Under the pieces are notes generated by a model. The model did no database searches. It saw only the letters and a program-made list of their open reading frames with translations, and had not been told where the DNA came from. A stretch of 52,402 nucleotides of DNA from a virus: positions 1 through 52,402 of the IMG/VR virus record IMGVR_UViG_3300029268_000024; one strand, 5' to 3'. This document shows, piece after piece, positions 3,329 to 37,153 of this stretch; positions within the stretch are counted from its first letter, which is position 1, and each line of letters opens with the position of its first letter. Made by a program: the position numbers and the translations under genes.

Positions 3329-6300
3329 TTACTTTGTATGGTCTGTGAATTGAGATATGATTCTACTAACTAGATCATCTCCCTCTTGGGTCGCTTTAGA
3401 TTCAAGAACAATAGCGGGAACCTGATGTCCCGAAGCTTCTACTGACTTCGCAGGCTCTTTGGAAGCGATTTTAATTGTTCTTTCGGGGAACAAGCTTTCT
3501 GCCATTGTAGGAATCTGATCAATTTCAAATGCTGTTAACGCTTTAACTACTGCATTAAACGTGCTTCTATCTGAAGCGATTCTCTGATTTGCCGCTAACC
3601 AAGCCGTTGTTTTAATGGCTTCGGTTTCTCTGGCCTTAGAGATTCTTTCCAGTTGTTGTTCACGTTTCTGTTGAACGTTCTTGAGCATTTCGCTATTAAT
3701 TCCGGGCATATCTTTTTGAACTTCTTTCTCATGCCCCATATAAGCCGAATCTATGGGAACATCGGGACCTTTTAGTGTCTCGTTGATTAGAGAATCAGCT
3801 TCTCTTTCTTTGCCCATATAGGCTTCGCTTCTAGGAACATCAGGGCCTTTATTCGGCTTATTGATTGCTGAATCGGCTTTGCTTTCTTCTCCCATCTTAG
3901 CATCGGCTCTAGGAACCTTAGCTTCAACATCTTTCTCAACGGTTTCTACTTCTGTCATCTGCTTAGCTTCCTTAACCTGTTTGGCATCTGAAGCGATAAC
4001 TGTACCCTTGATTTCGTTGTTGATAGCAGGCATTCCTTTTTGAACTTCCTGCTCATGTCCCATATATGCGCTATCTACAGCAACATCAGGGAGTTTCAAT
4101 TCTTTATTAATCAAAGAATCAGCTTCTTTTTCTTTACCCATATAGGCATCGGCTCTAGGAACATTAGGTTTAGCGAGTGTCTTATTAATCAAAGAATCTG
4201 CATCCTTTTCGCTCCCCATATAAGCTTCCTTACGAGGGACACCTGCTTCTACGTCCTTTTCGATGTGCTCTATCTTCGTAGGCATACCCGCCATTTTTAA
4301 TGTTGCCATATCCAAAACCTCCTCATTTGTTTTTCTAACTCTCTGACCATTCATTTGCATAGCCTGTTTGACTTCATCCTCGTTGGAAGATGTCTTTATA
4401 TCTTTTTCAGTTGCCGCACTAGTTTCACCTTTGCTAGTTTCTTTGCTAGTTTCACCCTTGCTAGTATCACCTTTGTCGCATTTGCAGAAGTTTAAAGGCT
4501 TCTTGCATTTATCGCAGCATTTTCCAGCTTCTTTAACTACAGGAGCTTCAACTTTAGCTTCTTTGGCGACAGGAGCTTCAACTTTAGCTTCTTTAGCAAC
4601 AGGAGTTTCGGCCTTTACTTCGGGCTTAACTTCCTTGACCAGTTCCAGATCAACCTCTATTTCTTTAGCAGGAGGAAGACTGGAACTAATATCTTTATCT
4701 AGCTCAGCTTCAACTTTTAATCCGGCATCGATAGCCGCTTGTTTCTTTTGCTCTTCTTCGAGATCATATAGGGCTTCGAGTTCTTTTTCTGTCCATCCCT
4801 CGTCCTTACCCTGTTTGATATCTTTTCCGAATGCCTGAGCGTATACGTTTAGCATCCACTTAGAGGCAAAACGCTCTTTGACACAACCACATAGTTCTTC
4901 GGCTTCTTTCGCAGGGAGCTTCTGAACTTGTGTTTGCTCTTCTACGCACTCATCAAACGGATCTTTTTCCATAGAAATAGCAGCAAACTTATTTAAATGA
5001 CGAACCTTTCTGAACCCCAACTTCTGAAGTTCTTTGCAGGCGCATTCAGCTAACATTTTACCCTTGCAAGGTCCGAAAGTAGCTACCGTATTTCCACCAT
5101 ACTGTCTAGCCAATCTTTCAATACAACTCTGCATCGGGAATTTATCAGCCTGTTCCTTAGCCGTCTTCAATAGTTTTTCAACCTTAATGGAAGCAGCAAA
5201 CTTAGAAACTTCTTCTTCGCACCCCTTGCAATTTCCAATATCGGGAGAAATATCCCATGATACTCTTAAGTAACCGATATCAGGATTACTTGCGCTAACC
5301 ATAACGTTCTTTTCTACTTCGGTTCCGCAAGCATCGCACTTAAATTCGGAATGACCATCTTGTTCCTTAGAAGCCTTGCAGTTCTTTTGTCCGCAAGCAG
5401 GGCAAACATGTCCGTGCTTTTTCTTATTTTCTGCAATACGAATAATGGTTCCCTTATCAATTCTCGTCTGAGCGGCAACAGGTAGCGCAGGAACTTCAGG
5501 AGCTTCAGGGGCTTCCGGAGTTTCGGCACCTTCTTCGCCAGAACTCTTGGTAGGTTTAATAATTTTGAATTCCACTATCTTCTTAATTAATGCTTCATAT
5601 TCGGCAGAGCAAGAATTACATTTTCCATGGATATCACCCGCTTCGTTGGAAACATCAACGTCATTACTTCCGCATTCAGGGCAAGTAGATAACATAGGCT
5701 GTTTCTTACCGGCAGTAGGGATATCAATATCTGTCTCATCACCCGGCTTTCCAGTGGTCAATGCCTGAATAGGATCAGCAGCAGGAGCAGGAGATGGAAG
5801 ACCTTGTTCAGATGCTCCCGGTGTAACTCCACCCGCACCTGTCATTGCCCCACCCATAGGAGACTGAGCCGTTTTGGTCATTTTTTTGCTAGAGGCCAAA
5901 GCGGGAGCAGCCATAGAAGCAGGAGCAGCAGAAGCACCGGCAGAAGCACCAGCAGGAGGCATTGTATTACCAAGGCCTTCTCCAGTCATATCTCCTTCGG
6001 GCATGGTTTCAGCACCAGCGGGAGCTTCGGTGCTTCCTACTGGAATATTCGTTGTTCCATCTCCGGTATCAATATTAACTGCGTTTTCTTCCGTATCTGT
6101 CTGAACCGCTATTTGAATTGTATCTCCGCTGATTGTTACATTCGTGATTGAAGCTAGTTTCAAATTCTGAGATGCTAACGCTCCTTTTGTGAAAGCTACA
6201 ATATCCTTACGAAAAGAAGGATTGTCTTTCTGGCATCCCAGCTCCTTAAAATTTGTTTCAATTACCGTATCAGAATTCTTGAGAGCCTGTTTGTTAAGAA

Positions 6301-8977
6301 TTTTTTCCCAGTTTTTTCTTTCAGTCTCACGAATCATTTTCTCATCTTTCTCAACCGTAGCTAAAATTTGAGATCGCTCGGAATCCCTTGCTACCTTCTC
6401 GTCAACCTTGGGCTTCAAAGCTTCTCTCAAAGCCGCCTTCCTATTGACAACTGCTTTCTCTACGCTAGCAGATTCGGCCAACTTAGCTTCGATCTTAGCT
6501 GTAACGCTAGCAATACCGTCTTGTCCTTCCGATACAACATCTATAGCATCAATAAGAACATCTGGATTGATAGTTTTATCAGAAGCAATTTTCCTTAAGC
6601 CATCCACGATCTGTTGAGCAATTTCTTTCTTTCCCGTACTAGCAACCTTGAGATTTTTATTAGACCAGAAAGCAACTCTCTTGGCATAATCAATATCTTC
6701 GCCGCTCTTAGAATCTTCCATAATTGAAACCGCCAAACTATAACGATTCTTGGTAGAGTCCACTAGAGAGGCCGCTACTTCGCAAGCTTCCTGAGGAGTA
6801 CAACCAGAAGAAATAACCGTATTAGCCATTACATCAACGGCAGCATTCATATGATCAGATGCGCTCTTAAACAAGGCAGGATTTCTATCTGCAACTCTAG
6901 CCCAAGGAGCCTGTACATTATCAAGCTGTCTTTCTGTAATTTGATCTTTCTCTCCATCCGTTCTTTGTGCGTCTAGCTGTTTCTGAGTAATTACGTGTTT
7001 CTCATCTTCGGTTCTATTATCACCCTTCATCTGGGCTTCCTGAACAACATCAGGAGTATTATCGGTTCTAGGATTCAGTTTGAGTTCGGTATCGTTCAAT
7101 TGTTTTTCTGTGATATAATCTTTTTCGCCCTTACGCTTTTCGTCCAACTGTTTTTGCGTAACGACATTCTTTTCGTCTCCGGTTCTGCTGTGATAGAGAC
7201 CCTTCTGCTCTAACTGTTTTTCCTGAACAACATCTGGAGTTGCGTTTACACTACTTGCCCCAGCTTGCTTATTAATGTCTGTCATTATACTTTCTCCTTC
7301 TTTTTGGTTATTAAATTTTGTAGCAAATGTTTCCAATAACTTAACTGCTGCATCTTTAGGCGATTCCTTAATTAGCTCTCGTTGTTCCTCCGATAAATCA
7401 TCATACGTCCATACAAAAGAAATATCGGGCTTTTCCTTTTTCTCAGCCACGATAATAAAAGAATCATCCCTTTGTTTTACAGAAAGGCGATTCTCGTTAT
7501 TCTGTATAGATGGCACTTGTTTAATATACTTAGAAAACTCTTGTTTTTCCTGCCACAAGTTTGATAAAACTTCAGTGGCTAGCTTAATCTGCTCAATTTT
7601 CTCAGAAATAGTGCGTCTTTTTCCCATCTCTAGTTCTCCTGTTTTTTCTAATTTTTCACGTAAAGTTGCCGATTTTCTGACAAGTTCAGATCCCGTATTA
7701 ATTCTTATGTCCTCGGATACCTGTTTTGGCTCTAACACAAAATCAGCTATTCTCTGAATTGATCTACTATCTACCACATCAGAAAGTTTCGGTTTTGCAG
7801 GGGTAGTAATTGGAGTTCTAGGTGCTGAAACCAGAGGCTTAGTAGGTGAGCCGGATATTTTTCCTGCACCCAAATTTCCAGTCATACTAGCGGGATTCAC
7901 AGAAGGGGCTCCTCCAATAGGTGCGTTTGCAATAGGGGCACCAGCAGCAGGGGCACCGGGAGCAGCAGCCGCAGGAGCACCTTCTTCTGCATTACCAATT
8001 GTTCCGGGAACCTCACCTTGAACGTTTCCATATCCAGCACCGATAAGTTCTTCTAGCCATGTTTGTAGTTGAGACATTATATCTACTAGATCGCTTGAAA
8101 ATTCCATCTCAACCTGTTTCCTGTTTTTGATTAGGTTGATGGCGATACCTTCCAATGTTTCCAATACTTGTTGAATCTGATCTAATTCTTCCTGACTAGC
8201 TTTCTTTTCAATGGCTGAAGTTTTGATAAACATCAATTCGTTTTCCATCTTAGCAACTTTACTCAGATAGACATCGTTACTCACAATTCCATCAATTCTG
8301 CAAGTAGGACAAGCAGGATCTACTACCGCACTTAGCTCAATAAACTTAAGACCATAATTATATTCAAATACGATCTGATCTTTGAAATCCTTCATCTCGC
8401 CAGTAATTACGTTTCTGGCTCTACCTGTAAATTTTCTACCTTTTCTATTACGGATATGGGTGCAATAATCTTCTGTTTTTTCGGCTCTATTTCCGCAAAT
8501 ATTACAAACGGAATATTCTACGCTACATCCCATCGAAACGCCGGTCACATATTCTTCTTCAATACTTCTGCAAATATGAGGATAGGCATCTCGATCAACA
8601 AAAGCTAAAGTATAAACTGTTTTTTCTTCTGGAACCCATTCGGCATAAATAACCTTACCACGGGCATTTTCCACGTTTTGATTATCATGATTGGTAAAAA
8701 ATGGAACCCCCTCAAATGTTTTGTAGGCCTTGGAAAGTTCTTCTAGAGAAAAATAATCACCATTAGAATTGGAGACATCAGCTTCAATAGCTTTGGCTCT
8801 AAAGAATAGGGCATTGGGGTGCTTGGAAATTTCCGATTTTACTACTCGGTCTTGTTCCGTCCCCGGTTCTATAATAAATTTCCCAGCAGCGGTACGGACA
8901 ATTTTTCCGCTTGCTTCTTGTTCAAAAGTTAACGGATTAATATTAAGAAACGTAAACGAAGCTATTTTTGCTAACAT
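3329..8977 (-). CDS. Prohead protease / scaffold polyprotein with internal starts
   Basis: This is an 1882-residue protein. The N-terminal 230 residues resemble prohead maturation proteases: EADVSNSNGDYF (about 66-76), a candidate catalytic His97 in NHDN, and candidate Ser148 in GVSMG, as in T4 gp21-like enzymes. Cys pairs (158/161, 172 with H174, 223/226) suggest bound zinc. The rest looks like scaffold or core: coiled-coil and Ala/Pro-rich stretches, QKQL/TEKQL repeats (about 583-688), zinc ribbons near 1097 and 1190, a Cys cluster near 1482, and two super-units of YMGxExxADSLIN repeats (about 1580-1780). Good ribosome-binding sites precede in-frame ATGs at 7627, 7285 and 4309, suggesting nested products as in lambda C/Nu3. 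Its start overlaps the previous stop (TAATG). Confidence 0.75.
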   Translation of the reverse strand: MLAKIASFTFLNINPLTFEQEASGKIVRTAAGKFIIEPGTEQDRVVKSEISKHPNALFFRAKAIEADVSNSNGDYFSLEELSKAYKTFEGVPFFTNHDNQNVENARGKVIYAEWVPEEKTVYTLAFVDRDAYPHICRSIEEEYVTGVSMGCSVEYSVCNICGNRAEKTEDYCTHIRNRKGRKFTGRARNVITGEMKDFKDQIVFEYNYGLKFIELSAVVDPACPTCRIDGIVSNDVYLSKVAKMENELMFIKTSAIEKKASQEELDQIQQVLETLEGIAINLIKNRKQVEMEFSSDLVDIMSQLQTWLEELIGAGYGNVQGEVPGTIGNAEEGAPAAAAPGAPAAGAPIANAPIGGAPSVNPASMTGNLGAGKISGSPTKPLVSAPRTPITTPAKPKLSDVVDSRSIQRIADFVLEPKQVSEDIRINTGSELVRKSATLREKLEKTGELEMGKRRTISEKIEQIKLATEVLSNLWQEKQEFSKYIKQVPSIQNNENRLSVKQRDDSFIIVAEKKEKPDISFVWTYDDLSEEQRELIKESPKDAAVKLLETFATKFNNQKEGESIMTDINKQAGASSVNATPDVVQEKQLEQKGLYHSRTGDEKNVVTQKQLDEKRKGEKDYITEKQLNDTELKLNPRTDNTPDVVQEAQMKGDNRTEDEKHVITQKQLDAQRTDGEKDQITERQLDNVQAPWARVADRNPALFKSASDHMNAAVDVMANTVISSGCTPQEACEVAASLVDSTKNRYSLAVSIMEDSKSGEDIDYAKRVAFWSNKNLKVASTGKKEIAQQIVDGLRKIASDKTINPDVLIDAIDVVSEGQDGIASVTAKIEAKLAESASVEKAVVNRKAALREALKPKVDEKVARDSERSQILATVEKDEKMIRETERKNWEKILNKQALKNSDTVIETNFKELGCQKDNPSFRKDIVAFTKGALASQNLKLASITNVTISGDTIQIAVQTDTEENAVNIDTGDGTTNIPVGSTEAPAGAETMPEGDMTGEGLGNTMPPAGASAGASAAPASMAAPALASSKKMTKTAQSPMGGAMTGAGGVTPGASEQGLPSPAPAADPIQALTTGKPGDETDIDIPTAGKKQPMLSTCPECGSNDVDVSNEAGDIHGKCNSCSAEYEALIKKIVEFKIIKPTKSSGEEGAETPEAPEAPEVPALPVAAQTRIDKGTIIRIAENKKKHGHVCPACGQKNCKASKEQDGHSEFKCDACGTEVEKNVMVSASNPDIGYLRVSWDISPDIGNCKGCEEEVSKFAASIKVEKLLKTAKEQADKFPMQSCIERLARQYGGNTVATFGPCKGKMLAECACKELQKLGFRKVRHLNKFAAISMEKDPFDECVEEQTQVQKLPAKEAEELCGCVKERFASKWMLNVYAQAFGKDIKQGKDEGWTEKELEALYDLEEEQKKQAAIDAGLKVEAELDKDISSSLPPAKEIEVDLELVKEVKPEVKAETPVAKEAKVEAPVAKEAKVEAPVVKEAGKCCDKCKKPLNFCKCDKGDTSKGETSKETSKGETSAATEKDIKTSSNEDEVKQAMQMNGQRVRKTNEEVLDMATLKMAGMPTKIEHIEKDVEAGVPRKEAYMGSEKDADSLINKTLAKPNVPRADAYMGKEKEADSLINKELKLPDVAVDSAYMGHEQEVQKGMPAINNEIKGTVIASDAKQVKEAKQMTEVETVEKDVEAKVPRADAKMGEESKADSAINKPNKGPDVPRSEAYMGKEREADSLINETLKGPDVPIDSAYMGHEKEVQKDMPGINSEMLKNVQQKREQQLERISKARETEAIKTTAWLAANQRIASDRSTFNAVVKALTAFEIDQIPTMAESLFPERTIKIASKEPAKSVEASGHQVPAIVLESKATQEGDDLVSRIISQFTDHTK

Positions 8978-11277: not shown

Positions 11278-11589
11278 TTATACTGCAATGGCTTGTCCGC
11301 CAGTTTCTTTAGCAGATAACCAATCGTTTACAGCTTTATTAATTTGGTCTGGTGACATACCCGGTACTTCCCTCATCAGAAGATTGACTATTTCTTTTCT
11401 AATCGAAGGGCGACTATATTTATTAAAACGACCCATGCTTCCGCTACCCGTTTGATACCAATTTTCAAGCTTACTTACCACATCTTGCCCCATTTGTCCC
11501 ATAGGCGATGGATTAACATCTGCTGTTTTCGTCCACCCAGCTTTCTTTCCCATCTCTTCCCACTGAGTTTTGCTTAGTTTAATTTTCAT
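11278..11589 (-). CDS. Small tagged protein (MKIKLSKTQWEEMGKKAGW family)
   Basis: The 103-residue protein opens with the tag MKIKLSKTQWEEMGKKAGW followed by TKTA. The following sequence is unrelated to that of the other tagged proteins: a Gly/Ser linker and a small helical domain (PSIRKEIVNLLMREVPG, then a helix ending NDWLSAKE). The tag is identical in protein and DNA to that of the next gene. The tag plus variable body recalls T4 internal proteins, whose N-terminal capsid-targeting sequence is removed by the prohead protease; applying that here is inference. An AAGGAG site precedes the ATG. Body function is unknown. Confidence 0.6.
   Translation of the reverse strand: MKIKLSKTQWEEMGKKAGWTKTADVNPSPMGQMGQDVVSKLENWYQTGSGSMGRFNKYSRPSIRKEIVNLLMREVPGMSPDQINKAVNDWLSAKETGGQAIAV
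11532..11589 (-). repeat. 58-bp identical repeat encoding the N-terminal tag (copy 1)
   Basis: The first 58 nt of this gene are identical to 11856-11913. Diverged copies begin the genes at 16936-17265 and 23675-24169. Identity stops where the tag ends, so only the tag segment is duplicated or conserved. Confidence 0.85.
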
Positions 11590-11613: not shown

Positions 11614-11913
11614 TTAGAAGTTTTCAACAACTTCCATGCCAGTTAATCTAGCATTTAATCTGGCATAAATATCTTTAATAAACGGCCCAAAAGCATCCCT
11701 TATTTCATCGGGAGAGGCTTTCCAAACATAAGGTACGTTTTCTAGGCGTCTAACAAGATCTTCGAGCATTTTATCCGGAGTTCCCCAATCTGGAATAATG
11801 TCCTCAATATTTTGTTTTAATGGTGGGATATTGCGATCAGTTTGTCCTGTGCGACTCCACCCAGCTTTCTTTCCCATCTCTTCCCACTGAGTTTTGCTTA
11901 GTTTAATTTTCAT
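11614..11913 (-). CDS. Small tagged protein (MKIKLSKTQWEEMGKKAGW family)
   Basis: The 99-residue protein has the same first 19 residues as its downstream neighbour and then diverges at once (SRTGQTDRN). The body is a predicted all-helical domain with alternating charge (DKMLEDLVRRLENVPYVW, then PDEIRDAFGPFIKDIYARL). No enzymatic motif is present. It is first after the portal gene and its terminator. A strong AAGGAG lies 6 nt before the ATG. By analogy it is a candidate internal or capsid-targeted protein; this rests on the shared tag and position in the head module only. Confidence 0.6.
   Translation of the reverse strand: MKIKLSKTQWEEMGKKAGWSRTGQTDRNIPPLKQNIEDIIPDWGTPDKMLEDLVRRLENVPYVWKASPDEIRDAFGPFIKDIYARLNARLTGMEVVENF
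11856..11913 (-). repeat. 58-bp identical repeat encoding the N-terminal tag (copy 2)
   Basis: Second exact copy of the tag-coding segment also present at 11532-11589. The identity includes the third codon positions. Confidence 0.85.
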
Positions 11914-11993: not shown

Positions 11994-14900
11994 TTATTGA
12001 GGTTGAACATTTGGAGCTTCGGGCGTATCAAATGTTTTCTGGTCTTGAGCCTGTCCCGCCTGCTGCTGCAAAGATAATTTCTTCCTCATAATACTTTGAA
12101 TAACAGTACGAATTACCTGTTCCAGTTTATTATCTATCTCTACATCGGTAAACCTGAGAATCGTCCATCCTTGCTGAGCTAACTTCATATCCCTTTCTTT
12201 GTCATGAGTAATCTGTTTGCCCGAACTATGGAATATTTCACCATCAGCTTCAATACCTATTTTGATATCCGGTATCCCGAAATCAATAGAATACTCTTCA
12301 GCACCTACCCTAACCCTATATTGCGGAATTATGGTGCTCTCTATCAAACCTTCCTGTTGAGCCTTCATAAGTCGTGGAATAAGAGCCCTTTCGCATTTGG
12401 TAAAAATAACACGCCCCTTTTCATCTCTGGTTTGCCCCTGAGCATCTTTACCACCCACCCCATGAACTTCCTGCTGTTGGAAAATTTTCTTCTGCTCTGC
12501 TGCTAATCTCTCACGAGTTTTCTTCTTCAAAACTCTACCACCAAATTGATTGGGATCAGCAACTTCGGCAGTCATACTAGAAGCCTTTGCCATCGGAGGC
12601 CCACCTACTCCACCACCCACAGGAGAAGGCCCACCTCCCGGCGCACCTCCCGCACCACCCATCTCTCCCGGAGCCCCAATAGGCGGTGCTCCACCTCCAC
12701 CTAAAGGAGGTAATCCCCCGCCACCACCTCCACCACCCCCACCAAATCCACCACCTGCTGCTCCACCCTGTTGCTGACCAAATCCTTGTCCCAAAGCCAT
12801 CATTTGTAGCGCATCATATCTCTTTCTTTCTATTTCCTGATCGGGGTCTAAGTCGAAAGATTCCAATAACGTTTGAGCACTAATAACACCCTTATCATAT
12901 AACTGAATCATGAAGGTTCTATATTGCTGCTGATCACGCAGATGCATCGAACCCCACTTAATCTTTGGAATCAAATATTCTTCTTCGCCTGTTTCGGGAT
13001 TCTTATCTATAAACCCCTGTCTCTTGGATTCGGGAAGATAAATAGATTGCTCGATCCATTGGGAAATTTCCTGTCTGAAAGTTTCCAATCTCTGAATCAT
13101 GGCTTCAATACCTACAGCGGCGGAACTGAAGTTAGGCCCTTCACCGTTGAGAAGCGCATTATTAATCATCATACCGTCAAGAACTTCCTGATTAATAAAT
13201 TCAAATTCATTAGACAAAGTTAATACTCTTCCCGCAGCACCTACAAAGTCTAACTCGAAAGCATGATGGGTAATAATAGTTAAATTAGGATCTTGTGCGG
13301 TCATTGCCAATTGTGCCTGAACATCGGCTATATCGGCAGGACCAGCGGGACGTTCATCGCTACCTACTTTAACAATCTTAATAGGAACAATTAATCTTTC
13401 GGCTACAATCCACTGAGCCACCATTAATTTTGTTTTGTAAGAAAGAATCGGGAACAATCTTCTTACCATTCCAATACCGTACTTCGTATATCCACACTCC
13501 CCATATTTTAAATGGGTTACATTGCGATTATCTAAACGAATAGGTTGTCCCGAAGAAATAAGCTTAATCACTTCGGGAGATAATCTTTCGTAACCCGGAG
13601 TCTTTCTTTGAACCATATTAATCAATTCTTCATCAGGTCTAAGAGCAATAATGGCATCGGGATTAACCGGAGAAGTATAAACCTCAACATAGTCGGGATT
13701 CAATATAACCATTCTTCTTATCGTTCCGCCCTCATGATCGCAAATTTCATCTCCCAATTTTCCCGAACCTTGACAATGAGGACATTCTATCTCTAAAAAT
13801 GGGAAACAATCTCCAAGCAAATGAACCTCATGGCTGATCAATCTGCACCACTTGGGAAGCTTGAGACGTTTTTTAAATCTATCAAAATAAAGTTTAACAT
13901 CCCGGTTTCTACATTCGTGCTCCCAATCGCTCATCGGAAAATCGGAATAGAAATCAATGGCAGAAGCTACTTTGGGTTCATTAGAATTATGAACAACACA
14001 TCCATTAATGCAATATGTATGATTATTTTCTATTTCAAGATCGTAAACTTTTCCACAGTAATGTTTGTGTTGAATGTCGATAATTTTTCGATACATTTTG
14101 TTTTTTAATGCAATATATTCTCTAATTTTATGATGATGTGCCGGAGTTATATGGCTATACTTTTCACAAATACCATTGAGTTTTTCACAAGCCATCCTCC
14201 CTATTCTTATATTGCAGCTTGGAGATTCGTTTAAGATGTTCGTTTTACATATTCTGGTTTTTTGAGTGCTCCAACTAACCGAATGAGACAAATTAAGTTT
14301 TGTACAAATTACTCTTAACTGAGACGCCAAAGGTTGAGAAGATATCCTTATTTGATCTCCGAAAGTATTGGAAACACATCCGTCTCCATCCGAAATTCCA
14401 GCTATAAAGTTTAACAATTGTGATTCAGAAGCATTATTTATAAACTCGGAACATAGTTTTTTGCCAAGACAGCCATCACCAATAATAGAATAAAACAATT
14501 TTGCAATTACCACATTATGTAAAACAATATCGTAGCACTTGCCATGTCCATTTTTGTATTCTTTTGTTTTAAATCCTAATTCATCTTCAATAATTTTTCT
14601 TGCTTTTTCCCCAATCGTATTTTTCTCGTCATTAGACAATGTTATGCGTATACCCTTAGGATATTTTCTTTCATTTTTATAGTTGTACCAGTAATATGAT
14701 CCATCTGCCGCAAAAAGACCAAGAAGCCAACATACCCTATCCGAAAACATATCCGGCATAAATTTACTAGTTGGTTTTAATTCAGGAGAGATAACGCAAT
14801 CACCAATTTTGATATTTCCCACTTCGTTCCATGACTCAGTAATATCAACCTTACCAAACTTTTTAATCCTTTCTTGCTTGCGTCTTTCTGAATGAACTGT

Positions 14901-15455
14901 TTGATAGGATTTTTCCCACTCTTCTTTTTTAACAACTTTTATTTCATGCGAATTTGTAATGGAAATCTTGGTATTGCTTCCGCCAATCTTTAATTCCGAA
15001 ATATCTTCATCAATATCACGAGTATGAACCCTCATAACCCTTTGTATATTACCGTTTTCATCAATAATTCTATCTCCAACAACAATATCGCATATTTTCT
15101 TCTCTGTCCCATCCGACATAAGTACTTGGTTATCAGGGGTTAAGCAATAAAAAAATCTACTCCATTGATATTCTTCGAGCCTCTTACTTGGGATTTGCCA
15201 ATTGATCGGGGTATGAACCGGAGAAAAGAATGCAGGCTGACCGTAAACTACTCCTGCACTAGAAGCAAAGCGTGACATTCCAGAACCCCAAGAGCCCGTA
15301 TTTACAGCAGCAGTAGGGGAATAATTATGTCGGGGAACTCTTTTATAATCCGGATGTTCTTCAATGATTTGCTTACTTATTTTACTGGGATCACGGCTAC
15401 GTAGTGCTTGAAAAGTCCTAGCTAGATCAGATGTTTGAATTACGGGCTCAGCCAT
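11994..15455 (-). CDS. Portal protein with intein and C-terminal DUF559-like nuclease domain
   Basis: The 1153-residue precursor contains a portal split by a 387-residue intein (residues 104-490). Mature portal sequence resumes at SNEPKVASAIDFYSDF and includes a zinc-knuckle-like set (C558, C561, C572, H574), a beta-rich wing (about 580-740) and the helical stem/crown (about 745-885). Portal rings nucleate capsid assembly and pass DNA during packaging. After a Gly/Pro-rich linker (about 895-955) comes a restriction-endonuclease-like domain (about 1015-1125), with D1058 (IDFG), E1069 and D1071 in IEADG, H1076 and an RFTDVEI strand, as in DUF559/Vsr-like proteins. This appended nuclease is unusual. 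Start: ATG with a GGAG site; a sigma70-like promoter lies just upstream. Confidence 0.85.
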   Translation of the reverse strand: MAEPVIQTSDLARTFQALRSRDPSKISKQIIEEHPDYKRVPRHNYSPTAAVNTGSWGSGMSRFASSAGVVYGQPAFFSPVHTPINWQIPSKRLEEYQWSRFFYCLTPDNQVLMSDGTEKKICDIVVGDRIIDENGNIQRVMRVHTRDIDEDISELKIGGSNTKISITNSHEIKVVKKEEWEKSYQTVHSERRKQERIKKFGKVDITESWNEVGNIKIGDCVISPELKPTSKFMPDMFSDRVCWLLGLFAADGSYYWYNYKNERKYPKGIRITLSNDEKNTIGEKARKIIEDELGFKTKEYKNGHGKCYDIVLHNVVIAKLFYSIIGDGCLGKKLCSEFINNASESQLLNFIAGISDGDGCVSNTFGDQIRISSQPLASQLRVICTKLNLSHSVSWSTQKTRICKTNILNESPSCNIRIGRMACEKLNGICEKYSHITPAHHHKIREYIALKNKMYRKIIDIQHKHYCGKVYDLEIENNHTYCINGCVVHNSNEPKVASAIDFYSDFPMSDWEHECRNRDVKLYFDRFKKRLKLPKWCRLISHEVHLLGDCFPFLEIECPHCQGSGKLGDEICDHEGGTIRRMVILNPDYVEVYTSPVNPDAIIALRPDEELINMVQRKTPGYERLSPEVIKLISSGQPIRLDNRNVTHLKYGECGYTKYGIGMVRRLFPILSYKTKLMVAQWIVAERLIVPIKIVKVGSDERPAGPADIADVQAQLAMTAQDPNLTIITHHAFELDFVGAAGRVLTLSNEFEFINQEVLDGMMINNALLNGEGPNFSSAAVGIEAMIQRLETFRQEISQWIEQSIYLPESKRQGFIDKNPETGEEEYLIPKIKWGSMHLRDQQQYRTFMIQLYDKGVISAQTLLESFDLDPDQEIERKRYDALQMMALGQGFGQQQGGAAGGGFGGGGGGGGGGLPPLGGGGAPPIGAPGEMGGAGGAPGGGPSPVGGGVGGPPMAKASSMTAEVADPNQFGGRVLKKKTRERLAAEQKKIFQQQEVHGVGGKDAQGQTRDEKGRVIFTKCERALIPRLMKAQQEGLIESTIIPQYRVRVGAEEYSIDFGIPDIKIGIEADGEIFHSSGKQITHDKERDMKLAQQGWTILRFTDVEIDNKLEQVIRTVIQSIMRKKLSLQQQAGQAQDQKTFDTPEAPNVQPQ
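13986..15146 (-). mobile_element. Portal intein with LAGLIDADG homing endonuclease
   Basis: The insertion starts with Cys (CLTPDNQVLMSDGT, block A) and has a block B-like ITNSHEI. It contains two LAGLIDADG-type helices, LLGLFAADGS and FIAGISDGDG (blocks C and E). It ends YDLEIENNHTYCINGCVVHN with the penultimate His and final Asn, followed by Ser as the first C-extein residue. The two DOD helices with acidic residues suggest an active homing enzyme. Splicing would join RFFY to SNEPKVAS. Both boundaries were checked at codon level. Confidence 0.92.
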
Positions 15456-16935: not shown

Positions 16936-17265
16936 TTAAACTGTTGGTTGAGTTGTGGCTGCGGGTTGAGCCGGTTGTTCCTTCTTTCCATCATATATAT
17001 CTGCCCTGTCACGCATTTTTTTAATAGTATTAGATATCCACCCTGAATCCATTCCCTGAATCCACCTTATCATAAAAGCTTCCCCGCCCCTACGACTATT
17101 AAATATTTCTACCATATTTGCAATGCCATCTTTTAAATCCTCTATTCCTTTCTTCACAATAGGATCTTCATAAATACTGGAAGGCTGTGGAACCCTTAAG
17201 CTAGTAACCCATCCAGCTTTCTTTCCCATCTCTTCCCATTGAGATTTGCTTAGTTTAATCTTCAT
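16936..17265 (-). CDS. Small tagged protein (MKIKLSKSQWEEMGKKAGW family)
   Basis: The 109-residue protein begins with the family tag, differing at one position (Ser for Thr at residue 8) from the two copies near 11.5 kb. The body is helical (DPIVKKGIEDLKDGIANMVE, then IRWIQGMDSGWISNTIKKMR) with a Pro/Ala/Thr-rich tail. No known domain was found. It sits 9 nt after the stop of the 339-residue gene and 10 nt before the 475-residue gene. The tag is about 90% identical in DNA to the other copies while the body shows no similarity, so selection on the N-terminus, or its exchange, seems likely. Confidence 0.6.
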   Translation of the reverse strand: MKIKLSKSQWEEMGKKAGWVTSLRVPQPSSIYEDPIVKKGIEDLKDGIANMVEIFNSRRGGEAFMIRWIQGMDSGWISNTIKKMRDRADIYDGKKEQPAQPAATTQPTV

Positions 17266-23674: not shown

Positions 23675-24169
23675 TTAATATTGAGGCGTTTGTCTATCTG
23701 GGCCATATTTATCGGAATGTCCTAGGGCTTGGTCATCGAACATTCCCATATCTCTTTGTTCAATGGCTTTTTCCTCATCATACATTTCATTACTCTGTCT
23801 GATAGCATCCCAAAAAGCTTCTGCATTTGGGAAAACTATTTTTGCAAGCTCTTCGGCTGTCATTTTTTGTCCACTTCTCACATTGGAAGCAGAAAAATTA
23901 CCCGCTGCAAACAGTTGAACATAATATTTCAAACCATTTCCATATAATGATCTTAAAGAAGTTAACAAATCTTGGTCGTTCAAAGTTCCATCATTGTAAG
24001 TTACGAGCCATGCGTTACTATTTTTTAAAGCGTCATAGTCTAAGGGCTCAATAAACTCAAATGAATCAAAATCTATAATTGCATCTCTAGAGCCAACCAG
24101 TGCAGTTTTCATCCATCCAGCTTGCTTCCCCATACTTTCCCACTGAGATTTACTGATTTTTATCTTCAT
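23675..24169 (-). CDS. Tagged protein (MKIKISKSQWESMGKQAGW family, 164 aa)
   Basis: The 164-residue protein has a diverged form of the shared tag, followed by MKTA, then a body distinct from the other family members. The body shows an alpha/beta pattern: SRDAIIDFDSFEFIEPL, then NAWLVTYNDGTLND and a helix LLTSLRSLYGNGLKYYV. An acidic, Gln-rich tail ends DRQTPQY. It is translationally coupled to the 117-residue gene (ATGA overlap). It shows that the tag occurs well away from the portal-capsid region, among accessory genes. No catalytic motif is recognised. Confidence 0.6.
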   Translation of the reverse strand: MKIKISKSQWESMGKQAGWMKTALVGSRDAIIDFDSFEFIEPLDYDALKNSNAWLVTYNDGTLNDQDLLTSLRSLYGNGLKYYVQLFAAGNFSASNVRSGQKMTAEELAKIVFPNAEAFWDAIRQSNEMYDEEKAIEQRDMGMFDDQALGHSDKYGPDRQTPQY

Positions 24170-31977: not shown

Positions 31978-33768
31978 TTAATATGACCATCCTGTTCTTA
32001 CCACTACCGGCTGCGGAAGGCCCATCCTAAATGTCTCATTGGCCGATGAAACCGCTCCTGAGAGACAATCTGCTAAGTCATCTGTATCCACATCACCATG
32101 TTTATCAGGGACAATAGAAAACCCCCTTGAAAGTTCCTTAAATCTTAATGCCTTGAGTTCTGCAATTAAAAGAGCCGATTCGCCACCATCATTGTATAAG
32201 TAGATCTCTGGCTCCGGTTGATAGGCCATCATCATTTTAAGATTCTGATAAATTTTCTGTTTAACCACTCTATTAAAACTCATTTGAACTGCATTGATAC
32301 CATGACTCTTAAGCAATTGAACGCTGGAGGTAGAATGATAATCGTCAAAGGTAACTGTCATAGGGTGGAATCTTGCACAAATACTTATAATATCTTGGTC
32401 AATTTGATGATATAGCAACCCTGTGCCGGGAACAGGTCTCCAAATCCATACTCCCGCCAGAAAACATCGATTCCTTTTCTTCCCTAAATAATTTGTATAT
32501 CTTTGTTTGGCCACTAAAACAGCCCCATAATTATTACCGCCTTTAGATGGATCAACATGAAGATAATAACTGAATCCGGGTTGTGGCCGAGTATGTTTTG
32601 CCAAATCGCCCCGCAAACATCTAACAATTAACCCTTCGTCAAAGAAATTACCATAGCTACCGCCTTCCGCCCATTGTGCTCCATATTCAACAGCAAACGT
32701 ATCAATGTTAGATTTTCTATCGCTGATAAATTCATCATTATTATATGGAAGACCGGGATTTGTTTTCCACGTAGGGAGATGGAAAGACAAAATTCTAGGA
32801 TCGCTTTCAGCCTGCTTATAGATTTCATAAAAGATTCCGTTGCGAGTATTGGGCGATGAAATTTCCACCAATCGTCCTTCGCCAAATTGATAAAAATGCG
32901 ATAAGGATGGTTTCAAACGATTATAAAAATATTTTCCAGTAACCTTCCCTGTTTCATCATAAAAGGCTAACTCGTCAAAAAGAATCAAAATGGCATTAAA
33001 TCCTGCTAACGAATCTGGATTACTATGTCCACAAAGAACTAAAATAGAACCGGGAACTTCCAAAGTAGCACCTTTTGATTTTTTTTCAAGATCTTTTTTG
33101 GTATAAAGTCTAATTTCAGAAGTCGTTTCTTTTGCAATACGTCCCCTGAAAAATGGCGAATTTCTTATTCTAGCCTGAATCATTCCAAATAATCTTTCTG
33201 CCTGTTTTTGAGAAAGAGCCACATTAATGATCGCTATTTCATCATCGCTAGGAAGTTTGTAATACGAATGTGGGTCTCCATTATTAATGACCAAAAGCTT
33301 ATAAACTTCGTAGGCCGTTATTACAGACGAGATAATCGTTTTACTGGCTCTTCTACCCAGAACCAATTGCAACTCATTAAAATTGGGTGGTTTTTCGCCC
33401 TCAGAAATCTTTTCTTTAGCCATTATTTTCTTGACGACATCCTTCATATTGGTTTTATAAGTTATCTCGTCCAGCGTTTCTTCTTTCTGACATTCATAAA
33501 GCCATTCCCATTCCTCTTGAGAAAGGGTTAGGTTTTCGTTTCCCCTCGATCCCATGTAGAAACACTTTAAGATAACTCGCTGAGACATCCACAAATTAAA
33601 TCCGTTATTGGGAAGATTAAGAAACCTAGGATCATTACAAAAAGTAATAATATCAACCATCTTGTACAAATCATCATCTTTTCTTAAGCTAGGATTATCG
33701 TTTTCTATTTGCCGTATAGCTGTTGATAAAGGACTTGATGCTTTCCTGTCTTCTGTTTTCTTTCTCAC
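31978..33768 (-). CDS. terL: Terminase large subunit
   Basis: The 596-residue protein has the two-domain plan of TerL, the ATP-driven DNA packaging motor and nuclease. The ATPase has Walker A LVLGRRASKT (about 136-144), Walker B ILILFDELAF (D265, E266) and a coupling motif EISSPNTRNG. The C-terminal RNase-H-like nuclease has YYLHVDPSKG (D406), VTFDDYHS and DVDTDDLADCL. These acidic residues match the three metal-binding positions of the family. It overlaps the upstream beta-propeller gene by 4 nt. Length is typical and no intein is present. No small terminase subunit was identified in the window. Confidence 0.93.
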   Translation of the reverse strand: MRKKTEDRKASSPLSTAIRQIENDNPSLRKDDDLYKMVDIITFCNDPRFLNLPNNGFNLWMSQRVILKCFYMGSRGNENLTLSQEEWEWLYECQKEETLDEITYKTNMKDVVKKIMAKEKISEGEKPPNFNELQLVLGRRASKTIISSVITAYEVYKLLVINNGDPHSYYKLPSDDEIAIINVALSQKQAERLFGMIQARIRNSPFFRGRIAKETTSEIRLYTKKDLEKKSKGATLEVPGSILVLCGHSNPDSLAGFNAILILFDELAFYDETGKVTGKYFYNRLKPSLSHFYQFGEGRLVEISSPNTRNGIFYEIYKQAESDPRILSFHLPTWKTNPGLPYNNDEFISDRKSNIDTFAVEYGAQWAEGGSYGNFFDEGLIVRCLRGDLAKHTRPQPGFSYYLHVDPSKGGNNYGAVLVAKQRYTNYLGKKRNRCFLAGVWIWRPVPGTGLLYHQIDQDIISICARFHPMTVTFDDYHSTSSVQLLKSHGINAVQMSFNRVVKQKIYQNLKMMMAYQPEPEIYLYNDGGESALLIAELKALRFKELSRGFSIVPDKHGDVDTDDLADCLSGAVSSANETFRMGLPQPVVVRTGWSY

Positions 33769-34613
33769 TTGACCACCTCTAAAATAAGTAATCCATTCTT
33801 GCCCTCTGTTAAATCAATAATGTTTTCAGACTCATAAACAATCATGCCATTTTTATTTGATATGGGGAAAGATTTAATAGAGTTCCCATCTAACACATAA
33901 ATAATATTATCTTGCAAAGTCATCCTCCTAGGTTGTACATCCTTTCTAGATGGATTCCCACAAAATAATGAAACCCCCTTACTACTTATTCTTCTAATGC
34001 AAAAATTTTCAAAATCAGCAACAAAAACATCGTTGTTGAATGTCATGATATCTGATGGACTATTAAGAGAGCATTCCGCTAAAGAATTAGACACCGAATA
34101 CCTACCTCTTCCATCTCCTATTAAAATTGATACCCTAGAATCCGAATAAGCTAAACATCGATGAATGTCGGGTGCTGTCCAAATAATACCATAGGGACTT
34201 CTAAAAGCTATCTTGGCATCTCCGCTTGGCACTACCTTCGAAAAAAGAACCCCCATAACCTTTTCATCTTCGCCTTTGAGTAAATTAGAACCAACCGATA
34301 AATTCTCCAAAACTCTTATTTTAATACCGCACTTCTCCAAAACATAAAGTTGTCGGGTAAAGGGATTATAGGCCAAAGCACATGGATCATCAAAATGAGA
34401 TTCGTAAAACTCCTGACGTTTTATCCCTTCTTCTCCCCTCCAAGGAACCACTGGATTTCCTTCTGGCGGTATTAAGCCTATACATTGATCATATACGAAA
34501 AGAATTCCCAATCCGTCAATATAACAAAAGTCTCTGATGGTAGGGGATTCTATTTCTACTATCGGTGTTGTTTTTTTAACTCCGGTAGGCTTTTCTATGA
34601 TTCTATACCTCAT
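33765..34613 (-). CDS. Beta-propeller (NHL-like) protein
   Basis: The 282-residue protein consists of successive four-stranded units typical of NHL-type propellers: DPCALAYNPFTRQLYVLE, SPYGIIWTAPDIHRCLAY, SPSDIMTFNNDVFVADFENF, RMTLQDNIIYVLDG. About six blades would fill its length. No signal peptide or enzymatic motif is present; NHL propellers usually bind proteins or carbohydrates. It overlaps both terL (4 nt) and the upstream solenoid gene (11 nt), so the three are translationally linked. Such a protein next to TerL is not standard. A virion, receptor or packaging-cofactor role is open. Confidence 0.65.
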   Translation of the reverse strand: MRYRIIEKPTGVKKTTPIVEIESPTIRDFCYIDGLGILFVYDQCIGLIPPEGNPVVPWRGEEGIKRQEFYESHFDDPCALAYNPFTRQLYVLEKCGIKIRVLENLSVGSNLLKGEDEKVMGVLFSKVVPSGDAKIAFRSPYGIIWTAPDIHRCLAYSDSRVSILIGDGRGRYSVSNSLAECSLNSPSDIMTFNNDVFVADFENFCIRRISSKGVSLFCGNPSRKDVQPRRMTLQDNIIYVLDGNSIKSFPISNKNGMIVYESENIIDLTEGKNGLLILEVVK

Positions 34614-37125
34614 TCACTATTTCCACTTGGTCTCTAGATAGCCAAACTCTTTTTCTGCCAAAATCTATATAAAGTTCAAAACCAATACCGTTAGGGATCT
34701 CATATATTTCTTGCACCATTCCAACCTTATTCAATAAACTTACAATCTTGTTATCAATACATCTAACCCTTGCCGGTTGAGATTTTAAAAACTCCATTTC
34801 GTCGTTCACAGCAGACATCTTTACTATCGAATCTTTAGCGTTGGCAAAAACCCATGTTGGATCTTCTCCTCCGAAAGATAATTCGATGGGCCTTTCTTTA
34901 ACATTAGCCACATCCCATCCCTTCATTTTACACTTAGATGGAAATTGATTGGGCATATCGGGAAGGGAAGAAATTTTAGGAGATATCAAAACCCCAAGTT
35001 CCTTCAAAAAGATATGTCCCAAAGATTCTACTATCGGTTTCCAATAACGCTGATAAAAATGAACAGAGCTTAATGGATACAAACTGGATAAATCTCCATC
35101 GGGAAAAATATCACTTACATTTAAACTATCATCCATTTCAATTCTTAGAATAGCCTTTTCGTCATCTTCTACTCGAACTATCTTAATGGCTTTGTTTTTA
35201 GGATCGCTCTTGTAAATTACATCTGGATGATGTTTGGCAACAGCAGAACAGGCTTGCTCCCCATAATGATCCATGATTTCCGAAACATCCTGCTCAGAAA
35301 ATGGATCTTCTTCTTTGGTAAACGATGCGGTAGCTTGTATTGGAGCAGGAGGCGCAACAGGTGGTTGAGAGGTTCCTGCTTCAGGCCCTATAGGAGGTGG
35401 TTGAGAGGTTCCTGCCAACATCCCACTCAATTCGTTAGGTTGGGCCTCCATTTCTTTTTTCTCTTTTTCTTTTTTGGCCTTATCTTTTGAGAGCATTTCG
35501 GGAAAATGTTCATTGGCGATTCCTCTGAACTTATTAATAATGGCATCGACTTTATCTTTGTATTCGTCTTTTTTAATGTTCTCTTTAAACGTTAATAGTT
35601 CGCCCACTATTTTTTTGATTTGTTCATAAACCATTTTTCTTTCTTTGGGGAGGTTGTCTTCAATTCCCTTGCATTGTTGGCCTATACTAACCATCACGTT
35701 TTCATATTGTTCGATTAATTGGGCCTCTGGGGTTTCGTCTATAGGAACCGGTTTGATAAAGTCTTCGGCTGCTTCTTTTTTCATAAACCACTTTTTTGCG
35801 GAAACCAATCCTTTTAGTTGCTCAAGGCTGTCATCTTTTTGTTCTGGTATTTCTTCTATTTTGTGCTTTAATGGATCTTCTGTTGCTATTTTACCATTAT
35901 CTTTCATCCATTTTATTTTTGCATCTATGGGGCAATTTGGATTTTGTGCCGCATTTTCAGAAATATTATATGCCGAATTTTGAAGAAAAACATTTTCTTC
36001 TTCTTCTTCTTTATTTCTTACTCTTTCCAGCACTTCTACCAACACTTCTGGTGGGCAATTTGGATTCGCTGCCGCATTTTGAGAAATCCAATCATCATTT
36101 CCCCTTCTTAAAATTTCCGCTAACATTTCTGGTGGACAATTTGGATTTCGTACTGCGTAATAAGCAACATTATCATGTCTTAGTCTCAAAATTTCCGTTA
36201 ACATTTCAGGTGGACAATTTTTATTTTGTGCTGCCAAATCAGAAACCCAATCGTTTTTTCCTCTTCTCAAAATTTCCGCTAACATTTCTGGCGGACAATT
36301 TTTATTTCCTGCCGCATTTTGAGAAACAGGATCATCCTTTCCCTCTCTTAGTATTTCTGTTAATATTTTTGGATCTTTGGTACTGTATGCTATATCACTT
36401 GTATATAAATCTTTGTCCCTTGCCGCTTTATACATTTTGAAATTTTTCCCTACCAGTTCTTTCAATTTCCTTAAATCTTCATCATCTTTTTGTTCTGCTA
36501 CTTCTTCTATGATGTGCCTAGTAGGATCTTCTTTGTCTATTCTCCCAGTATCTCTCATCCATTTTATTTTAGCATCTATAGGACAATTTTGATTTTTTGC
36601 TGCCTGCCAAGAAACATTATTGTATTTTCCTCTTTTCAAAACTTCTGCTAATATTTCTGGTGGACAATTTGTATTTCTTGCCGCAGCCCAAGAAACATTA
36701 TCGTTACTTCCTCTTCTTAAAATTTCTATTAGCATTTCAGGTGGACAACTTGGATTTTGCGCTGCTGCTTGAGAAACATCATCATCATTTCCTCTTTTCA
36801 AAACCTCTTCTAATATTTCTGGCGGACAATTTGGATTCGCTGCTGCATTTTTAGAAGACCAATCCTCATTTCCCCTTCTTAAAATTTCTGTTAATATTTT
36901 TGGATCTGTGGTTTCTTCTGACAACCAATAATTTTCGGCAACAGCAAAAGTTTCTAGTTTATACTTATCCCTTTCTTTAAATAGTTTTTTAGCATCCCGA
37001 TAAGCTTTCCAAGCATATTCGTAAGTTGGACGGACAAAATCAACAGAAGCATGATGTTGAAGAGAAGAGAAGCCTCCCACTTCAAATGAATATCTACCAT
37101 TTACATTGTAGAGTTTAAGATGCAT
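34603..37125 (-). CDS. LRV-type alpha-solenoid repeat protein (840 aa)
   Basis: The start at ATG 37125 is preferred over an upstream GTG at 37143, which overlaps the TATAAT box. Residues about 65-420 hold roughly ten repeats of the form NPNCPPEMLAEILRRG-NDDWVSQNAA, matching the leucine-rich-repeat-variant (LRV) pattern. They form two tandem super-units, each closed by NCPIDAKIKWM and a charged EQKDD segment. A coiled-coil region (about 470-570) and a Pro-rich linker follow, then a C-terminal alpha/beta domain (about 610-840) ending WLSRDQVEIVNEV. LRV solenoids bind proteins or nucleic acid. The partner is unknown. It starts the TerL transcription unit. Confidence 0.75.
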   Translation of the reverse strand: MHLKLYNVNGRYSFEVGGFSSLQHHASVDFVRPTYEYAWKAYRDAKKLFKERDKYKLETFAVAENYWLSEETTDPKILTEILRRGNEDWSSKNAAANPNCPPEILEEVLKRGNDDDVSQAAAQNPSCPPEMLIEILRRGSNDNVSWAAARNTNCPPEILAEVLKRGKYNNVSWQAAKNQNCPIDAKIKWMRDTGRIDKEDPTRHIIEEVAEQKDDEDLRKLKELVGKNFKMYKAARDKDLYTSDIAYSTKDPKILTEILREGKDDPVSQNAAGNKNCPPEMLAEILRRGKNDWVSDLAAQNKNCPPEMLTEILRLRHDNVAYYAVRNPNCPPEMLAEILRRGNDDWISQNAAANPNCPPEVLVEVLERVRNKEEEEENVFLQNSAYNISENAAQNPNCPIDAKIKWMKDNGKIATEDPLKHKIEEIPEQKDDSLEQLKGLVSAKKWFMKKEAAEDFIKPVPIDETPEAQLIEQYENVMVSIGQQCKGIEDNLPKERKMVYEQIKKIVGELLTFKENIKKDEYKDKVDAIINKFRGIANEHFPEMLSKDKAKKEKEKKEMEAQPNELSGMLAGTSQPPPIGPEAGTSQPPVAPPAPIQATASFTKEEDPFSEQDVSEIMDHYGEQACSAVAKHHPDVIYKSDPKNKAIKIVRVEDDEKAILRIEMDDSLNVSDIFPDGDLSSLYPLSSVHFYQRYWKPIVESLGHIFLKELGVLISPKISSLPDMPNQFPSKCKMKGWDVANVKERPIELSFGGEDPTWVFANAKDSIVKMSAVNDEMEFLKSQPARVRCIDNKIVSLLNKVGMVQEIYEIPNGIGFELYIDFGRKRVWLSRDQVEIVNEV

Positions 37126-37134
37126 ATCACCAAT

Positions 37135-37140
37135 ATTATA
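37135..37140 (-). promoter_or_regulatory. TGTATAAT promoter for solenoid-propeller-terL unit
   Basis: The minus strand has TTGTGTATAATATTGG 9 nt before the preferred ATG at 37125 and 14 nt after the RNR terminator. Such a short leader implies a very short or near-leaderless mRNA if transcription starts at the usual distance. The -35 region is not obvious. Confidence 0.5.
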
Positions 37141-37153
37141 CACAATATTCCTA

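What the first reader, a model, noticed from the sequence alone, without database searches (positions are those of the whole stretch)
11994..15455. Portal protein fused to a DUF559/Vsr-like nuclease domain
After the portal crown and a Gly/Pro-rich linker, residues about 1015-1125 have the IDFG, IEADG and RFTDVEI pattern of PD-(D/E)xK nucleases. A nuclease tethered to the portal ring would sit at the DNA gate; it could trim ends, resolve branched DNA or attack host DNA on injection. I know no standard portal with this domain.
Basis: partly seen in the sequence, partly recalled or inferred. Interest (0 to 1): 0.75.

Follow-up and report, generated by a model that had tools for sequence, protein, structure and literature searches.

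The report
Phage portal carrying its own nuclease
In a large family of uncultured (often giant) bacterial viruses, the ring protein through which DNA enters and leaves the virus head carries a DNA-cutting enzyme domain on a flexible tail; it has kept its active-site residues across the family, which suggests that these viruses cut or tidy their DNA right at the packaging gate.

Summary
The minus-strand ORF at 11994-15455 (1153 aa) is a portal with a C-terminal DUF559/Vsr-like REase domain (residues ~1015-1125; Pfam E 7e-10 and 2e-9). The predicted fold matches a solved DUF559 protein, homing endonuclease I-Bth0305I and Vsr (Z 13.9, 12.6, 10.3).

The domain is a fixed trait, not a local accident: 36 distinct sequences (window included) carry it behind the portal. 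They form one clade (100/99 support, one change). E1022, D1058, E1069, D1071 and D1089 are invariant, and the nuclease tree follows the portal tree (Mantel r 0.83). The sister group with Bacillus phage G lacks it.

The portal model aligns to T4 gp20 through most of its C-terminal part. About 85 disordered Gly-rich residues follow, so about twelve nucleases should hang inside the head beside the DNA channel (inferred). My preferred mechanism is clearing branches, nicks or damaged ends from DNA during packaging, a covalent counterpart of T4 endonuclease VII bound to gp20. An injected effector is the main rival. Activity is untested. Portals fused to other enzymes are known; I found no report of a restriction-fold nuclease on a portal.

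The parts
11994..15455 (-). portal-nuclease fusion ORF, 1153 aa, interrupted by an intein
   Evidence: ORF call and translation; family matches
15147..15455 (-). portal N-terminal part, residues 1-103
   Evidence: collinear with the N-termini of intein-free relatives L002, L003, L010
13986..15146 (-). intein, residues 104-490 (C104 ... VHN490, +1 residue S491), with LAGLIDADG homing endonuclease motifs
   Evidence: Intein_splicing, LAGLIDADG_3 and intein_Cterm matches; uninterrupted insertion site FFYENEPKV in relatives; residue check
12741..13985 (-). portal core, residues 491-905
   Evidence: phrog_16240 portal 1.8e-39; 34% identity to Bacillus phage G portal; portal fold of homolog L010
12543..12800 (-). 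Gly/Pro-rich disordered linker, residues ~886-971, ending in the subclade-conserved peptide T-A-E-V-A-D-P-x-Q-F-G-G-[KR]-[VI]-L
   Evidence: composition and conserved peptide; pLDDT about 30-40 over the equivalent stretch of L010, residues 500-580
12081..12413 (-). DUF559/Vsr-like REase-fold nuclease domain, residues ~1015-1125; E1022, D1058, E1069, D1071, H1076, D1085, R1088, D1089
   Evidence: Pfam, residue conservation in 36 sequences, AF2 pLDDT about 90 over most of the domain and PDB matches
3329..8977 (-). head maturation protease with a long C-terminal region, 1882 aa; downstream packaging-module partner of the portal gene
   Evidence: phrog_18299 head maturation protease 2e-16; a homologous ORF lies downstream of the portal in all 11 loci compared
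31978..33768 (-). terminase large subunit with a complete set of candidate RNase H-type acidic residues, so the portal nuclease is an extra nuclease, not a replacement
   Evidence: phrog_2 2.1e-29; LHVDPSKGG, VTFDDYHS, DTDDLADC motifs

Best explanation
It is a portal subunit with its own nuclease. After the intein splices itself out, subunits of about 766 residues should form the usual ring (twelve, by analogy with other portals). Each sends a flexible Gly-rich tail from the crown end into the head, with a Vsr/DUF559-fold nuclease at its tip. I think the domain cuts structured or damaged DNA (branches, nicks, flaps, ragged ends) that reaches the channel during packaging, so that the motor does not stall. 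That would be the job T4 does with endonuclease VII held non-covalently on its portal gp20. Shown here: the fusion, its fixation in one clade, conserved catalytic residues, predicted fold, purifying selection, co-inheritance with the portal. Inferred: location inside the head, copy number, catalysis, substrate, timing.
For: Family and fold. Conservation: E1022, D1058, E1069, D1071 and D1089 36/36; Q1045, H1076, D1085, R1088 35/36. One clade, one change, 100/99. Nuclease and portal trees agree: Mantel r 0.83 against a permuted maximum of 0.32, and 18 of 31 splits shared. Nuclease dN/dS about 0.07-0.08 in the two pairs with unsaturated dS (L036/L039, L101/L105). L112 has an intein-like insertion inside the IEADG active-site motif, a kind of site that inteins favour in conserved proteins (general knowledge). 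Geometry: model residues 90-474 align to T4 gp20 residues 70-493, before the disordered linker; stem, wing and crown of gp20 lie inside the capsid and portal-bound gp49 releases branched DNA arrested in packaging (PMC9958956; PMC3485210). No NUMOD-type DNA-binding module was detected on the fused domain, so targeting may come from the tether.
Against: No activity data. Two genomes with the fusion (L033, L040) also encode a RusA resolvase, so a branch-resolving nuclease is not uniquely supplied by the portal; that phage G without the domain has RuvC is one case only. Twelve tethered nucleases beside packaged DNA would be dangerous unless specific, gated or cleaved off. To my knowledge DUF559/Vsr enzymes are not known as junction resolvases. 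Relative L042 has an in-frame TGA between portal and nuclease.
Confidence: 0.45

Rival explanations
1. Virion-carried effector: the nuclease is cut from the portal by the prohead protease, or stays attached, and is delivered with the DNA to attack host or competitor DNA.
For: Enzyme domains fused to portal or MuF domains (PBECR RNase, 2H, InPase, RelA/SpoT) are interpreted as injected effectors (PMC5512222), and more than half of MuF toxins are nucleases (PMC5576092). A head protease gene lies downstream of the portal gene. A short conserved peptide (TAE.ADP.QFGG) interrupts the disordered linker in the window's subclade.
Against: Effector domains of that kind are polymorphic and swap between relatives; here one nuclease family is kept in the whole clade and co-inherited. 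No cleavage site is demonstrated.
Confidence: 0.25
2. Discrimination gate: like its structural relatives PvuRts1I and AbaSI, the domain cuts DNA by modification state, so host or satellite DNA entering the portal is destroyed.
For: Fold matches to PvuRts1I and AbaSI; two members hit the PvuRts1I-like_N family weakly.
Against: The reading domain of those enzymes was not detected in the fusion; nothing is known of this phage's DNA modification.
Confidence: 0.12
3. Homing-endonuclease origin and still selfish: an EDxHD/Vsr-type homing nuclease that landed at the end of the portal gene.
For: I-Bth0305I is a close structural match; free-standing phage relatives of the domain include ORFs annotated as homing endonucleases; these portal genes are an intein hot spot.
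Against: No empty site inside the clade, one gain and no loss, congruent trees, intact catalytic residues, no NUMOD module detected. Homing genes are usually sporadic and decay.
Confidence: 0.08
4. A nuclease fold kept for structure or DNA binding only, without catalysis.
For: No activity shown; nuclease folds reused as binding modules are known in general.
Against: E, D, E and D of the active site are invariant in 36 sequences whose nuclease domains otherwise diverge to about 30-40% identity.
Confidence: 0.07

Closest known systems
T4 portal gp20 with bound endonuclease VII (gp49)
   Same: a nuclease stationed at the portal; portal core fold matches gp20
   Different: in T4 the nuclease is a separate protein of another fold, bound non-covalently; here it is a REase-fold domain in the same chain
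DUF559 (PF04480) / MTES_1575 / Vsr-like REases; PDB 3hrl
   Same: family match above gathering score, same fold (Z 13.9), same D and E-x-D motifs
   Different: known members are stand-alone or fused to other DNA-handling or defence proteins; none found on a portal
EDxHD homing endonuclease I-Bth0305I (3r3p)
   Same: catalytic-domain fold (Z 12.6) and detectable sequence similarity
   Different: no DNA-recognition module detected, no intron, inherited vertically with the portal
Portal or MuF fused to enzymatic domains (polyvalent proteins, MuF toxins)
   Same: catalytic domain attached to a portal-vertex protein
   Different: published domains named in the text are RNase, 2H, InPase, lysozyme or toxin families; I found no DUF559/Vsr-type domain on a portal there
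Bacillus phage G portal gp14
   Same: closest portal of a cultured phage (34% identity), same Gly/Pro-rich C-terminal tail
   Different: ends after the tail; no nuclease in the portal and no DUF559 match in the genome

Membership tests
tailed-phage portal protein | sequence homology to portals | tested here: met
   phrog_16240 1.8e-39; tblastn to phage G portal 2e-67
tailed-phage portal protein | portal fold | tested here: met
   AF2 of homolog L010: lambda portal Z 19.6, T4 gp20 Z 16.7, SPP1 gp6 Z 16.7
tailed-phage portal protein | dodecameric ring in the virion | not testable with these tools
   needs particles or cryo-EM
DUF559 / Vsr-like REase superfamily | profile match above curated cut-off | tested here: met
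   DUF559 37.6 bits against cut-off 20.6; MTES_1575 39.3 against 38.2
DUF559 / Vsr-like REase superfamily | conserved acidic active site | tested here: met
   E1022, D1058, E1069, D1071, D1089 invariant in 36 sequences
DUF559 / Vsr-like REase superfamily | fold | tested here: met
   3hrl Z 13.9 over 94 residues, Vsr 1cw0 Z 10.3 over 107
DUF559 / Vsr-like REase superfamily | metal-dependent DNA cleavage | not testable with these tools
   needs purified protein
EDxHD homing endonuclease | sporadic distribution with empty sites among close relatives | tested here: not met
   present in every clade member with a readable C-terminus; one change on the tree
EDxHD homing endonuclease | attached DNA-recognition module (e.g. 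NUMOD) | tested here: inconclusive
   only DUF559 and MTES_1575 (and weak PvuRts1I-like_N) found in the C-terminal region; an unknown module is not excluded
MuF/polyvalent effector fusion | polymorphic swapping of C-terminal catalytic domains | tested here: not met
   same nuclease family throughout the clade
LAGLIDADG intein (residues 104-490) | N- and C-terminal splicing blocks, HN|S junction, LAGLIDADG motifs, uninterrupted homologous site | tested here: met

The most novel reading that the evidence does not exclude
A DNA-packaging portal with a built-in quality-control nuclease: a whole clade of phages, jumbo phages among them, covalently fixed a debranching or proofreading nuclease to the portal ring, so that every head carries about twelve cutters at the entry channel that clear or reject structured or foreign DNA.
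Probability: 0.35. Interest if true: 0.8.

Novelty: new variant of a known kind. Interest (0 to 1): 0.62.

Why it matters
Portals are usually treated as rings without enzymatic activity; a conserved covalent nuclease at the gate would make the portal an enzyme and give a direct handle on how huge, recombining genomes are cleaned up while being packed, a step T4 solves with a recruited resolvase. The clade is large (35 distinct sequences besides the window, on contigs up to 476 kb), I found no cultured member, and the domain is compact and testable.

Tried and rejected
Local insertion or misassembly: rejected, 35 relatives share the domain. Replacement of a lost terminase nuclease: rejected as the simple reading, the TerL acidic motifs are present. 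Filling in for missing resolvases: not supported as a rule; RusA is present in two fused genomes, endonuclease VII and Hjc rang in none (endonuclease VII rang in no control either, so its absence is not shown), T7 endonuclease I in one unfused record only. Stop-codon recoding in L042: its other homologous coding ORFs show no pattern of in-frame TGA, so the single TGA is a point mutation, an assembly error or readthrough, undecided. Host identification through genome contigs: two scans found no relative. Literature: no paper held pairs DUF559 with a portal fusion; the jumbo-phage survey PMC7824862 mentions portals and REase folds separately. dN/dS is saturated or nearly so for most pairs; only two pairs are usable without that doubt.

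Full report
WHAT IS THERE. The ORF lies on the minus strand of 11994-15455 and encodes 1153 aa. From its N-terminus: a portal segment (1-103), an intein (104-490, then S491), the portal core (491-905), a Gly/Pro-rich linker (to ~971), a basic stretch, the nuclease domain (~1015-1125) and a short tail. Pfam DUF559 and MTES_1575 both pass their gathering scores.

FOLD. AlphaFold2 on the C-terminal 182 residues with 11 sequences gave pLDDT about 90 over most of the nuclease domain. Solved structures matched by VIA-align: DUF559 protein 3hrl (Z 13.9, 94 residues, 1.6 A), I-Bth0305I catalytic domain (Z 12.6), Vsr 1cw0 (Z 10.3), then Bax1, AbaSI and PvuRts1I. A full-length model of the intein-free relative L010 gave a portal fold (lambda Z 19.6, T4 gp20 Z 16.7, SPP1 gp6 Z 16.7), a disordered linker (500-580, pLDDT about 33) and the nuclease again at about 90. 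The model aligns to gp20 up to residue 493 of that protein; stem, wing and crown of gp20 lie inside the head (PMC9958956). The nuclease is therefore expected on the inner side of the gate; this is inference.

DISTRIBUTION. Scans of IMG/VR with the portal core and the nuclease and profile searches gave 61 distinct portal cores. The nuclease was recovered behind the portal in 36 sequences including the window: in the same ORF in 35, and after a single in-frame TGA in L042. One more clade member, L110, is cut off by the end of its sequence before that point. In the tree the nuclease-bearing portals are one side of one branch (100/99; one change in all bootstrap trees). The sister groups, including Bacillus phage G, lack the domain; phage G has no DUF559 match anywhere in its 497 kb. 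The nuclease tree follows the portal tree (Mantel r 0.83, permuted maximum 0.32; 18 of 31 splits shared). In the two pairs with unsaturated synonymous change the nuclease dN/dS is 0.07-0.08. In L112 the ORF changes inside the IEADG motif into a Hint-like sequence that runs to the end of the contig (Intein_splicing E 9e-4, below gathering): most likely an intein in the nuclease active site.

HOW IT MAY WORK. Precedent one: T4 holds the resolvase gp49 on portal gp20, and gp49 releases branched DNA arrested in packaging (PMC9958956; PMC3485210). Precedent two: portal and MuF proteins carry enzymatic domains read as injected effectors (PMC5512222; PMC5576092). Long vertical retention of one nuclease family, with no swapping, fits a house-keeping packaging role better than an effector. 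Against a simple 'missing resolvase' story, RusA is present in two fused genomes. The terminase keeps its own nuclease motifs. I put about 0.45 on packaging-linked DNA processing, 0.25 on a virion effector, 0.12 on a discrimination gate, and the rest on homing, structural or unlisted roles. The existence, fold and conservation of the domain I regard as about 0.95 certain.

NOVELTY. Portal-enzyme fusions and portal-bound nucleases are each known; a REase-fold nuclease fixed to the portal of a whole clade was not found in the literature held nor in 50,697 phage records. Most subscription journals are not in that library. I therefore call it a new variant of a known kind.

Noticed in passing
window 13986-15146 (-): A 387-aa LAGLIDADG intein splits the portal; relatives carry inteins at several other portal sites, and L011 has four in one portal (1841 aa ORF).
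   Followed up: partly
L112 about 8160-8547: Intein-like Hint sequence inserted inside the nuclease active-site motif IEADG; contig ends before the insert does.
   Followed up: partly
window 11278-11589, 11614-11913, 16936-17265, 23675-24169 (all -): Four otherwise different small proteins share the N-terminal peptide MKIK[LI]SK[ST]QWE[ES]MGK[KQ]AGW; looks like a capsid-targeting or prohead propeptide, comparable in idea to T4 internal-protein targeting sequences.
   Followed up: partly
L042 7725-7727: A single in-frame TGA separates portal and nuclease; the downstream frame remains conserved with L040 and L041.
   Followed up: partly
window 12530-12580 (-), and relatives: A short conserved peptide (TAE.ADP.QFGG[KR][VI]L) inside the otherwise low-complexity linker of the window's subclade; possible protease or docking site.
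   Followed up: partly
window 3329-8977 (-): Head maturation protease domain at the N-terminus of an unusually long 1882-aa protein.
   Followed up: no
window 34603-37143 (-): 846-aa protein with leucine-rich variant/HEAT-like repeats next to the terminase.
   Followed up: no
L118 5575-8622: Phage G-type portal with a different ~400-aa C-terminal extension that is not the nuclease.
   Followed up: no
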